Of a stretch of DNA of 64,000 bases, positions 34,402-41,981 are shown in pieces. This DNA comes from an uncultured Aquimarina sp. (GTDB lineage Bacteria; Bacteroidota; Bacteroidia; Flavobacteriales; Flavobacteriaceae). The translations under genes were made by a program, and so were the position numbers. The number at the start of each line of letters is the position of its first letter. Positions within the stretch are counted from its first letter, which is position 1. The stretch spans positions 124,001 to 188,000 of the forward strand of contig CANMSL010000006.1 of the NCBI GenBank assembly GCA_947500505.1, in the 5' to 3' direction. The notes below the pieces were generated by a model that saw nothing but the letters and a program-made list of their open reading frames with translations, ran no database searches and had not been told where the DNA came from.

Positions 34402-35094
34402 TTATCGTATTTTAAATGGAGTAATTTTCTTATAAGACCCATATCTTTCATTATACACCTTCTGTAATTCTGAAAGCTTCATATTCCAAATAACCTGATC
34501 ATTTTCTCTTTTTTCGTTAACATGCTTTATTTTAAAAACATCACAAATCACGATTTTTTTATCATTGAGGCAAGCTTGATATCCAAGCTCCCAATCAAAA
34601 CCCCAGCCACTCCATGAGTCTGGAAAACCTCCATAATCTTCAATGAATTTAATATCCATTACACAACATAAAATATCACTATGGTGTACCAATCTATTCT
34701 CTCTTTTGCCTTTGTTGATCATCCAAGGATAATATCTTTTATCAGAGTTTTTGGTCAAAGAAACCCCAGCCTGAACAATATCTGGATATTCTTTTACTAA
34801 TTCATCAAAATAGGTAATATCTAATTTATTTTGAAAATGTATATCATTGGTGATTATTAATACGTATCTACACTTGTGTTGTTTAGCTAGTGAAACACAA
34901 TCTTTTAAACCTCCTCCTATTCCCGTATTCTTTGTATTTTGATGAGTAATATATTTACTTTTATTATGAGGGCTGGCATTGTCTAGTATATGGATTAGAA
35001 AATTAGGATTCCATTCGGAAAGTTTTTCATATAAAAGATCTGTTTGTTTACCGCCACAATAATCTAAGATGACACTAAAAATTCTGTTATTCAT
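34402..35094 (-). CDS. GT2-like (GT-A) glycosyltransferase
   Basis: FSVILDYCGGKQTDLLYEKL...LDNASPHN, NTGIGGGLKDCVSLAKQH, VLIITNDIHF (DxD-like); overlaps the upstream CDS by 8 nt. Confidence 0.75.
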   Translation of the reverse strand: MNNRIFSVILDYCGGKQTDLLYEKLSEWNPNFLIHILDNASPHNKSKYITHQNTKNTGIGGGLKDCVSLAKQHKCRYVLIITNDIHFQNKLDITYFDELVKEYPDIVQAGVSLTKNSDKRYYPWMINKGKRENRLVHHSDILCCVMDIKFIEDYGGFPDSWSGWGFDWELGYQACLNDKKIVICDVFKIKHVNEKRENDQVIWNMKLSELQKVYNERYGSYKKITPFKIR

Positions 35095-35971
35095 ATGCTA
35101 CTTTTTGTATCTCTTTTAGTCCGTTTAAGAATAAATAATAAACCTGAGATTCATTATCAACAGCAAATATTGTGGTTATTATAGCTAATAGATATTTGTA
35201 ATCTTCATCGTCTATTGGCACACTTCCTTTTGCGGATAATCGTTGTATTACTTCCTTTATAGTTGTTACCCAAATTCTCTGCCATTCATATTCAAACCTG
35301 ATTTCCTTATCCCGTTTATTAAAAAGACTATCGATATAATCTACAATGGGTTCTTTATTATCTTCAAAATTCTCTTCATTGTTGATTCTCATTTTATCCA
35401 ACAAGGAGCCCTCATATTGGTTGTAGCTATTTTCCAACAATTCCTCAAATAATTTAATTGATCTGTCAATATCAATGCTAAGGATCCTACAAAACCACAC
35501 AAACATTTCCAGGATAATTTCAGTAAGATTATCCAAAGTTTCTTCCTGGTAAGATTCAAATAAGGATATTAATACTTTAGATATCCCGCTATAGTAAAAA
35601 TCAAACACTTCTGATTCGTGTGGTTTTATAATCAAATCAAATATTCCATAGTGAATTGAATTATTTGAAAAATCCATATACATTCTCACAGGTTCTTTTG
35701 AAGATATTGCAGTGGGCGAGGGCTTTTTTTTAATAAATTCTTTAAAATATGAATCCATCTTTTTTGCTAATGCCAACCCTTTTTGTCCATCGACCAATAA
35801 AGTTAACTTGATATGATCTCCTCTTGACTGTCCTAGCGAGATATAATAGCAGTGAATTTGAGTGGTATTTTTCTCCAAAAAAGGTTGTATAGCTTGAAAT
35901 AAAAATCTAAACCAATAATTCTTTTGATAAAAGAAAGAAACATTCAAATATTTAGGATTGGAGTACTGCAT
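35087..35971 (-). CDS. Stand-alone protein resembling the thiopeptide-type bacteriocin / lantibiotic dehydratase C-terminal (SpaB_C-like) domain
   Basis: YLNVSFFYQKNYWFRFLFQAIQPFLEKN...IHCYYISLGQSRGDHIKLTLLV resembles the R-Y-x-D-x-G-x-H-I-R-L start of that family; adjacent to an RiPP precursor. Confidence 0.5.
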   Translation of the reverse strand: MQYSNPKYLNVSFFYQKNYWFRFLFQAIQPFLEKNTTQIHCYYISLGQSRGDHIKLTLLVDGQKGLALAKKMDSYFKEFIKKKPSPTAISSKEPVRMYMDFSNNSIHYGIFDLIIKPHESEVFDFYYSGISKVLISLFESYQEETLDNLTEIILEMFVWFCRILSIDIDRSIKLFEELLENSYNQYEGSLLDKMRINNEENFEDNKEPIVDYIDSLFNKRDKEIRFEYEWQRIWVTTIKEVIQRLSAKGSVPIDDEDYKYLLAIITTIFAVDNESQVYYLFLNGLKEIQKVAYE

Positions 35972-35977
35972 ATCTTC

Positions 35978-40071: not shown

Positions 40072-40305
40072 TTAACAATTGCTTCCTGCGCAAACACAGC
40101 TTCCATTCCAACCACCTTGATTATTACAAGCCCAGTTACAAGTGCTAGCGCTACAATCCGGAGCTCCCGTAATATTAACTCCTGAATTGCATCCACAAGC
40201 CCAGTCTCCTCCATAGGTATACCCTCCAAAAACAGCTTTTAACTGATTTCTTTCAAGCATTTCCCGATCATTCAATTCCAAACCTTTTAATTTCAGTTTT
40301 TTCAT
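40072..40305 (-). CDS. Cys-rich RiPP precursor peptide with GG-type Bacteroidetes leader
   Basis: MKKLKLKGLELNDREMLERNQLKAVFGG | YTYGGDWACGCNSGVNITGAPDCSASTCNWACNNQGGWNGSCVCAGSNC; 8 Cys in core; leader resembles the TIGR04149-type family. Confidence 0.85.
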   Translation of the reverse strand: MKKLKLKGLELNDREMLERNQLKAVFGGYTYGGDWACGCNSGVNITGAPDCSASTCNWACNNQGGWNGSCVCAGSNC

Positions 40306-40370
40306 ATTATTAAGTTTTAAGAGTAAGCTTTCCCTGAACCTTTAAAGACACTCAAGGATTATGTCCATTA

Positions 40371-41981
40371 TTATATAAGCACATTTTTTAAATCTTTAAT
40401 TTGATATTCCTTAGGTAACTCATACCCATTGATAAAAATAGTAGGGGTATAGGTTATTTTTTCTTCAGTACACCAATCCCTCATCATTTTAATTTTATCC
40501 ATTTGTTGTATTAACTCTCCATTCATAGGATATTTATCAGCAAAGGTTTCGTAATCTTTGTTCTCTGCCAGATACCAATCATCCAACGCTTTTTGTGTTT
40601 GTTCTTTATCTCCCTGGCTATCAATAGCTAAAAAATGTCGTACCGGTTTGGCTTTATAGTCTTTGGAATCAGTAGAAGAAGCAAATAGTATTTGTAAATT
40701 AATGACTCCTTTTTCTACCAATTCTTCTAGTATAGGATGGGCTTCTGCACAAGGACCACAATAAGGATTACAAACTTTGATGACTGAATATTTTGCTATA
40801 TCATTTTTAAAAATAATTCCCATTCCATCGGTAGGATGTTGTATTTTTTTTGATTTTTGTAAAAGTCCGGTAAAGACATTGGGGTTATTCTTTAATTGCA
40901 GGAAATTTCTTTTATAAAAATTGCTTTCTTTACTGCGCTCTAATAATGGTTTTAAAAGTTTCCAGCTAAGAATAGGTAATACCGACATTACAATAAAAGC
41001 AGGCAGTAGAGAGATATCTAAAGGTTTAGCATACCAATTGGTAAAAAGTACCAAAACAATTTCTAATACTAACACACCTTGTATCGCAATACACAGCTTA
41101 CACCATTGTTTTAAAATGGCTCCCTGATATATCAAAGAGGATATAATAAAGGGTAAAGAAAGAAGACTTAACCATCCAGTTATCGCCAGAGCACTGAAAG
41201 AAAACCCTCGTAAAAGTAAAAATGAAGATGTCCCAAAGAAATAAGCAAATCCTATTTCACTCCAGCTAAAAGCATCAAATAAAAATGTAGCTTGTTTAGA
41301 ATTGAGAACTGCATTACAATTTACTTTTTTACTGCCAGAACAGATTTTTTGTAAGACAGGGTTATGTTTATCTATTTCATACCAAAGTAATAGGCCACCA
41401 ACCACCATCCCAAATACCTTGATTACGAAAAAAATGATCAAAAGAAGTTGAGATATTAATTCTGTATTTGTTTGTTTATAAAAAGATATTCCTATCCAGC
41501 CAAGAAGGCTCAGTAAAAAAATAGCAGCTCCAAGAATCAAAACCTTGTTGCTAAACTTTTTGTTTGCATAGTTTTCTTCGCCAGAGGCTTCATCAGTCTC
41601 GGCAAAAAGGCAGATACCTGTCCACCGTTGGGTAAACTCATTAAAAGGTTCCCAGGTATATTTGTCCTCAGAATTGTAAAATCCTACTTTATCATCTGTA
41701 ACTTTCGTTACTACAACAAAATTTTTTGTTCCCTGAGCAGCTACCTGAGCGATAAATGGATGTTGAATATTTTTAATTCGGTTAGCATCTAACTTTGCTG
41801 ATACTGAATCTATACTACAACTCTGCAAGGTATCGGAAACTGCAAGCATACTTCGGTAGTTAGGATGCGATAGTATTTTATCCTTTATATAGCTCAACGT
41901 TACTTTGGCCTGTAACAATTTGGTGAATCTATATGTGGATAAAATTACATTTTCCTTAGTAAGCATTGATTTTAAAAGCAT
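40371..41981 (-). CDS. C39-peptidase-like (degenerate) - VKOR - thioredoxin fusion membrane protein
   Basis: IKNIQHPFIAQVAAQGTKNFVVVTKVTDDKVGFYN...WTGICLFAE (C39-like); KHNPVLQKICSGSKKVNCNAVLNSKQA...WCKLCIAIQ (VKOR); VCNPYCGPCAEAHPILEELV (CxxC). Confidence 0.85.
   Translation of the reverse strand: MLLKSMLTKENVILSTYRFTKLLQAKVTLSYIKDKILSHPNYRSMLAVSDTLQSCSIDSVSAKLDANRIKNIQHPFIAQVAAQGTKNFVVVTKVTDDKVGFYNSEDKYTWEPFNEFTQRWTGICLFAETDEASGEENYANKKFSNKVLILGAAIFLLSLLGWIGISFYKQTNTELISQLLLIIFFVIKVFGMVVGGLLLWYEIDKHNPVLQKICSGSKKVNCNAVLNSKQATFLFDAFSWSEIGFAYFFGTSSFLLLRGFSFSALAITGWLSLLSLPFIISSLIYQGAILKQWCKLCIAIQGVLVLEIVLVLFTNWYAKPLDISLLPAFIVMSVLPILSWKLLKPLLERSKESNFYKRNFLQLKNNPNVFTGLLQKSKKIQHPTDGMGIIFKNDIAKYSVIKVCNPYCGPCAEAHPILEELVEKGVINLQILFASSTDSKDYKAKPVRHFLAIDSQGDKEQTQKALDDWYLAENKDYETFADKYPMNGELIQQMDKIKMMRDWCTEEKITYTPTIFINGYELPKEYQIKDLKNVLI

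What the first reader, a model, noticed from the sequence alone, without database searches (positions are those of the whole stretch)
34402..41981. Candidate RiPP operon combining glycosylation, sulfation and oxidative folding
Eight minus-strand genes in tight succession (two pairs overlapping by 8 and 14 nt) encode a C39-like/VKOR/Trx fusion, an 8-Cys precursor, a TlpA-like thioredoxin, a sulfotransferase, an APS kinase, two GT-A glycosyltransferases and a SpaB_C-like protein. Seen directly: gene order, overlaps, motifs. Established: APS kinase makes PAPS, VKOR/Trx drive disulfide formation, GG-leader peptides are RiPP precursors. Inference: the product is a disulfide-rich peptide that is glycosylated and then sulfated. 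I do not recall a described RiPP family with this gene set, but novelty was not searched.
Basis: partly seen in the sequence, partly recalled or inferred. Interest (0 to 1): 0.88.

Follow-up and report, generated by a model that had tools for sequence, protein, structure and literature searches.

The report
Glycosylated, sulfated disulfide peptide gene cluster
A marine bacterium (probably Aquimarina) carries a gene cluster, recurring in related genera, that most likely makes a small cysteine-rich peptide, attaches sugars and sulfate to it, exports it and locks it with disulfide bonds, using a glycosyltransferase that travels with a relative of a lantibiotic enzyme that has lost its usual catalytic residues.

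Summary
The eight minus-strand genes, the 8- and 14-nt overlaps and the 8-Cys GG-leader precursor are all there. Comparative evidence strengthens the reading. GT1 is followed directly by the SpaB_C-like gene in all 14 best homologous loci, 11 of which also carry a peptidase-containing ABC exporter (PCAT). Related GG-leader precursors with mostly six-Cys cores occur in six other genera. The syntenic locus of an uncultured Aquimarina holds the same genes plus PCAT, HlyD, CysD and a second GT1/SpaB_C/GT2 set. The sulfotransferase-APS kinase-GT1-SpaB_C-GT2 cassette recurs in Flagellimonas; Flavivirga uses a different sulfotransferase. The operon's APS kinase is the genome's only one. Corrections: the C39-like domain lacks catalytic Cys and His; there is no local exporter (an orphan PCAT+HlyD lies on another contig); the SpaB_C-like protein has the TbtD/LanB-elimination fold, but residues that the genome's two genuine elimination proteins keep are replaced. 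Best reading: a cytoplasmically glycosylated and sulfated, then exported and oxidised Cys-rich RiPP. Sugar acceptor, sulfate position, activity and expression of this reduced locus are unknown. A limited open-access literature search found no description. New variant of a known kind; the GT/pseudo-SpaB_C pair is the most novel part.

The parts
40371..41981 (-). Fusion: degenerate C39-like domain + VKOR + DsbA-like thioredoxin; oxidises exported peptide, C39-like part possibly binds the GG leader
   Evidence: Pfam C39/VKOR/Thioredoxin_4; catalytic Cys and His of C39 not conserved; 73% identical syntenic orthologue; 1204 relatives among scored candidates
40072..40305 (-). Precursor peptide: 28-aa GG leader, 49-aa core with 8 Cys
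   Evidence: TIGR04149 22.6 bits, below cut-off 25; leader conserved with precursors of related clusters
38426..40018 (-). TlpA-like thioredoxin lipoprotein (CSPC motif), periplasmic thiol-disulfide partner
   Evidence: Thioredoxin_8 33 bits; sequence; equivalent gene beside precursors in related loci
37748..38374 (-). Sulfotransferase (Sulfotransfer_2, carbohydrate-sulfotransferase type)
   Evidence: PF03567 53 bits; PKTAGTA PAPS-binding motif; clade with the RiPP-linked STs of two other loci, support 98/87
37228..37761 (-). APS kinase (CysC), PAPS supply; only copy in the genome
   Evidence: PF01583 170 bits; single genomic hit
35978..37090 (-). GT1: GT-A glycosyltransferase with beta-rich C-terminal part; proposed peptide glycosyltransferase
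   Evidence: Pfam; beta-4-GalT/chondroitin synthase profile hits; model pLDDT 91.5 with GT-A matches; beside the SpaB_C-like gene in all 14 best homologous loci
35087..35971 (-). Pseudo-SpaB_C: stand-alone LanB elimination-domain homologue without the elimination residues; proposed leader-binding partner of GT1
   Evidence: Model pLDDT 88 matches TbtD, then MadB/NisB/MibB; motif loss versus the genome's own elimination proteins
34402..35094 (-). Second GT-A-like glycosyltransferase, proposed sugar extension
   Evidence: TND and SGWGFDWE motifs; no Pfam; 1 of 400 family genomes, this one, otherwise almost only in this locus type
42360..42443 (-). Remnant of another precursor leader (in-frame stop, GG lost)
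   Evidence: an extra precursor ORF lies upstream of the VKOR fusion in the relative too

Best explanation
A RiPP biosynthetic operon. In the cytoplasm GT1, aided by the pseudo-SpaB_C protein as leader/substrate-binding partner, glycosylates the core of the GG-leader precursor; the second GT extends the sugar; the APS kinase makes PAPS and the sulfotransferase sulfates the sugar (less likely Tyr). The modified peptide is cut after GG and exported by a PCAT/HlyD pair encoded elsewhere in this genome, and the VKOR-Trx fusion with the TlpA-like lipoprotein forms and edits the disulfides in the periplasm. Shown by computation: gene content, conservation, fold, loss of elimination residues, leader similarity. 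Inferred: substrates, order, compartments and bioactivity.
For: GT1 followed by pseudo-SpaB_C (gap -35 to +25 nt) in all 14 homologous loci above 310 bits, 11 with PCAT. Related GG precursors, 16 of 18 cores with even Cys counts, mostly 6. Syntenic relative with extra precursors plus PCAT, HlyD and CysD. Same ST-APSK-GT1-SpaB_C-GT2 cassette in Flagellimonas beside CysN/CysD; different sulfotransferase directly after SpaB_C plus APS kinase in Flavivirga. Sole APS kinase, no Sulfotransfer_3 gene in the genome, CysD present. Orphan PCAT with intact DCG motif plus HlyD in the genome. Purifying selection. TbtD-like fold, the TbtD structures including a complex with a leader fragment.
Against: No chemistry has been measured. 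No local exporter; a precursor remnant suggests the locus is shrinking. Sulfation genes occur in only a minority of GT1/SpaB_C clusters. The sulfotransferase type otherwise sits mostly in polysaccharide clusters. In Flagellimonas meridianipacifica and several other loci no precursor was detected near the cassette.
Confidence: 0.6

Rival explanations
1. Same pathway, but the sulfate goes on tyrosine of the core (RaxX-like) rather than on the sugar.
For: RaxX is a GG-leader RiPP sulfated on Tyr and exported by a PCAT (PMC8872720); every listed core has at least one Tyr.
Against: Sulfotransfer_2 is largely a carbohydrate-sulfotransferase family (own knowledge); the cassette couples ST with two glycosyltransferases; other loci with Tyr-bearing cores have no sulfotransferase.
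Confidence: 0.22
2. The window locus is a decaying remnant: exporter, CysD, one GT1/SpaB_C/GT2 set and extra precursors were lost, and no product is made.
For: The syntenic relative has these genes; precursor leader remnant.
Against: All eight ORFs intact; dN/dS 0.11-0.17 where dS is measurable; exporter pair and CysD in trans.
Confidence: 0.15
3. GT1 and the SpaB_C-like protein form a new kind of dehydratase: a sugar (or sulfate) placed on Ser/Thr is then eliminated to give dehydroamino acids.
For: Strict pairing with an elimination-domain homologue; LanC-like genes near two related loci.
Against: Arg, Glu and His elimination residues are replaced; sugar-elaborating genes (second GT, UGM, GT90, DUF707) imply the sugar is kept; no LanC in this operon; sugar is a poor leaving group.
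Confidence: 0.06
4. GTs, sulfotransferase and APS kinase build a surface polysaccharide and adjoin the RiPP genes by chance.
For: Distant sulfotransferase homologues sit mostly in polysaccharide clusters.
Against: GT1/SpaB_C conserved with PCAT and precursors across genera; the second GT is nearly confined to this locus type; gene overlaps.
Confidence: 0.06

Closest known systems
RaxX / raxSTAB sulfated RiPP (Xanthomonas)
   Same: GG-leader precursor, dedicated sulfotransferase, peptidase-containing ABC exporter (PMC8872720)
   Different: No glycosyltransferases, no pseudo-SpaB_C, no VKOR fusion or Cys-rich core; tyrosine is the acceptor
Glycocins (sublancin type; from own knowledge)
   Same: Disulfide-bonded, glycosylated GG-leader peptides
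   Different: GT1 gave no NCBIfam match to a peptide S-glycosyltransferase model; sulfation and pseudo-SpaB_C are not part of glycocin clusters
Stand-alone LanB elimination-domain proteins and thiopeptide pyridine synthases (TbtD/PbtD)
   Same: Fold; TbtD was solved with a leader fragment; PMC7268733 suggests stand-alone elimination domains may catalyse something other than elimination
   Different: Paired with a glycosyltransferase instead of LanB/LanC or thiopeptide enzymes; elimination motifs lost
Pinensin-like split-LanB class I lanthipeptide clusters of Bacteroidota
   Same: GG-type leader in some, separate LanB C-terminal protein (PMC7268733); two split-LanB clusters in this genome
   Different: No Lant_dehydr_N gene and no LanC gene in this operon
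TIGR04149 (GG_sam_targ_CFB) precursors
   Same: Similar leader (22.6 bits)
   Different: Below the cut-off; no radical SAM gene in the operon

Membership tests
RiPP biosynthetic gene cluster | Small precursor with leader plus linked modifying enzymes, conserved across species | tested here: met
RiPP biosynthetic gene cluster | Modified mature peptide observed | not testable with these tools
   needs co-expression and mass spectrometry
TIGR04149 precursor | Score above curated cut-off 25 | tested here: not met
   22.6 bits
Class I lanthipeptide | Lant_dehydr_N plus LanC with the precursor | tested here: not met
   Both Lant_dehydr_N genes of the genome are on other contigs; no LanC in the operon
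LanB elimination domain (PF14028) | Profile match or fold | tested here: met
   Homologue 25.5 bits vs cut-off 24.4; fold match TbtD/MadB/NisB/MibB; the window protein itself has no profile match
LanB elimination domain (PF14028) | Elimination residues in H-[IL]-R-x-R, E-x-x-R-Y-G and H-M-x-x-N motifs | tested here: not met
   HIKLT, NSIHYG and no C-terminal His motif, versus intact motifs in the genome's own two split proteins
Glycocin | SunS-type S-glycosyltransferase | tested here: not met
   No NCBIfam S-glycosyltransferase hit; none among the top 50 structural matches shown
Sulfated RiPP (RaxX-like) | Sulfotransferase linked to a GG-leader precursor | tested here: met
Sulfated RiPP (RaxX-like) | Tyrosine sulfation | not testable with these tools
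   acceptor unknown
C39 double-glycine peptidase | Catalytic Cys and His | tested here: not met
   Val and Asn region in place of Cys and His in the window fusion; the PCAT on contig C3 keeps Cys

The most novel reading that the evidence does not exclude
GT1 and the elimination-dead SpaB_C protein are a new two-component RiPP-modifying enzyme, a portable glycosylation module used on several RiPP types in Bacteroidota (also found beside grasp-with-spasm genes), and here its product is the first RiPP that is both glycosylated and sulfated on the sugar.
Probability: 0.42. Interest if true: 0.85.

Novelty: new variant of a known kind. Interest (0 to 1): 0.7.

Why it matters
It would add sulfated glycopeptides to the RiPPs, give a role to stand-alone LanB elimination-domain homologues that have lost elimination residues, and point to a family of Cys-rich secreted peptides in marine and soil Bacteroidota. 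The gene set is small enough to test directly by co-expression.

Tried and rejected
SpaB_C profile against PDB sequences gave only helical chance hits; the fold comparison was needed. A viral-contig search with the sulfotransferase returned many distant relatives of no use here. A literature search for all of sulfotransferase, glycosyltransferase, RiPP, Bacteroidetes and precursor peptide found nothing; other searches found no description of this gene set, but only open-access papers are held. 'Class I lanthipeptide' was considered because of SpaB_C and rejected (no LanB_N or LanC in the operon, residues lost). 'VKOR fusion as marker' was rejected because it is common. One wrong contig (L156) and the L092 flank fetches were uninformative.

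Full report
OBSERVATION. The eight genes, strand, order and overlaps are as described. Domain assignments hold, with two weak ones: the SpaB_C-like protein has no Pfam match of its own and the second glycosyltransferase has none either. GT1 aligns with its homologues from 37090 rather than 37198.

CONSERVATION. A search with three GT1 proteins in 85,488 species genomes returned 44 loci. In all 14 that score above 310 bits against the window GT1 (all Flavobacteriaceae by title or kin), the next gene on the same strand is the SpaB_C-like gene, from 35 nt overlap to 25 nt gap, and 11 have a PCAT in the fetched flank. Among lower-scoring loci (Chitinophaga, Mucilaginibacter, Pedobacter and others) nine more have the pair; most of the rest, mainly Chitinophaga, do not. 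GG-leader, Cys-rich precursors lie beside VKOR fusions, TlpA-like proteins and PCATs in various combinations in Algibacter, Croceivirga, Galbibacter, Winogradskyella, Flagellimonas and Flavivirga. Of 18 precursors compiled, 16 have an even number of core Cys, mostly six.

THE SYNTENIC RELATIVE. An uncultured Aquimarina contig has the same flanking GntR regulator and aldolase genes and, beside them, VKOR fusion, several precursors, TlpA-like genes, PCAT, HlyD, sulfotransferase, APS kinase, CysD, and two GT1/SpaB_C/GT2 sets. The window version is a shorter form. Its genes remain under purifying selection: VKOR fusion, APSK, GT1 and SpaB_C have dN/dS 0.11-0.17; ST and the second GT have saturated dS with dN 0.15-0.21. 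An orphan PCAT+HlyD pair with the catalytic DCG motif lies on contig C3 and CysD on C2, so export and APS supply can work in trans (inference).

SULFATION. The window APS kinase is the only one in a 99.99% complete genome, and no Sulfotransfer_3 gene was found. The cassette PCAT-HlyD-ST-APSK-GT1-SpaB_C-GT2 recurs in Flagellimonas meridianipacifica, next to CysD/CysN. Flavivirga aquimarina has a Sulfotransfer_3 protein directly after SpaB_C, an APS kinase, and a second sulfotransferase. Algibacter pacificus carries a protein whose first part is SpaB_C and whose later part resembles that Flavivirga sulfotransferase, as if left by a deletion. Winogradskyella has an APS kinase and a weak Sulfotransfer_2 match. 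So sulfation genes of two types were joined to this cluster family. Distant Sulfotransfer_2 relatives occur in 43 of 400 family genomes, the six examined lying mostly in polysaccharide clusters, but the three RiPP-linked ones form a clade with 98/87 support. The second GT was found in 1 of 400 family genomes, this one, and otherwise in the relative, in Flagellimonas and in one Cytophagales MAG.

THE SpaB_C-LIKE PROTEIN. An AlphaFold model (pLDDT 88) matches the pyridine synthase TbtD best, then other pyridine synthases and the dehydratases MadB, NisB and MibB. The window's genome also holds two split LanB/SpaB_C/LanC lanthipeptide clusters. Their SpaB_C proteins keep HLRIR/HIRVR, ELERYG/EIERYG and HMLMN; the operon protein has HIKLT, NSIHYG and no such His motif. 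These motifs correspond to the NisB elimination residues (own knowledge). Elimination is therefore unlikely, and a binding or new catalytic role with GT1 is likely (inference). TbtD was solved with a leader fragment. An earlier survey noted that stand-alone elimination domains may catalyse another modification (PMC7268733).

GT1. GT-A fold (pLDDT 91.5), profile nearest to chondroitin synthase and beta-1,4-galactosyltransferase, with a beta-rich C-terminal part outside the best catalytic-domain matches.

REDOX AND LEADER. The VKOR fusion has WCKLC and CNPYCGPC motifs, but its C39-like domain lacks catalytic Cys and His, so it could bind but not cut leaders. Over a thousand relatives exist among the scored candidates.

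MECHANISM. Cytoplasmic glycosylation, extension and sulfation on the leader-bearing precursor; GG cleavage and export by PCAT; periplasmic oxidation and editing. The first half rests on PAPS and sugar nucleotides being cytosolic, the second on VKOR/TlpA topology (established knowledge); neither was shown here.

NOVELTY. No paper found describes this gene set, within an open-access library only. Each enzyme class is known; the combination and the conserved GT/pseudo-SpaB_C pair are the new points.

LIMITS. GT1 search sensitivity depends on two conserved peptide patterns. Several loci show no precursor nearby, possibly because their leaders differ. The organism is inferred to be Aquimarina or close to it from the syntenic contig's title.

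Noticed in passing
42360-42443 (-): Leader of a second precursor with in-frame stop and lost GG, upstream of the VKOR fusion; an extra precursor ORF lies upstream of the fusion in the relative too.
   Followed up: partly
L172 9868-14234; L173 7339-11700 (own genome C1 and C13): Two split-LanB lanthipeptide clusters (LanC, LanB N-part, SpaB_C) in the same genome.
   Followed up: partly
L103 13904-16060; L095 7706-9903: GT1/SpaB_C cassette lies beside grasp-with-spasm graspetide genes, suggesting a module that serves different RiPP types.
   Followed up: partly
L007 4992-10290 (Algibacter pacificus): PCAT and HlyD broken into several frames and a SpaB_C/sulfotransferase chimera: a decaying copy of the cluster.
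   Followed up: partly
L006 5036-8967 (Croceivirga radicis): Cluster with GT90, DUF707 and UDP-galactopyranose mutase near integrase-like and conjugative TraM genes; may be mobile.
   Followed up: no
L171 6440-6823 (own genome C1:562440-562822): Fragment of a PCAT gene with stops.
   Followed up: no
L008 8098-9693 (own genome C2): Second C39-like/VKOR/Trx fusion with no precursor detected beside it.
   Followed up: no
2786-33642: Sulfatase-like, glycoside-hydrolase-like proteins and a SusC/D pair flank the operon: ordinary polysaccharide-use genes.
   Followed up: no
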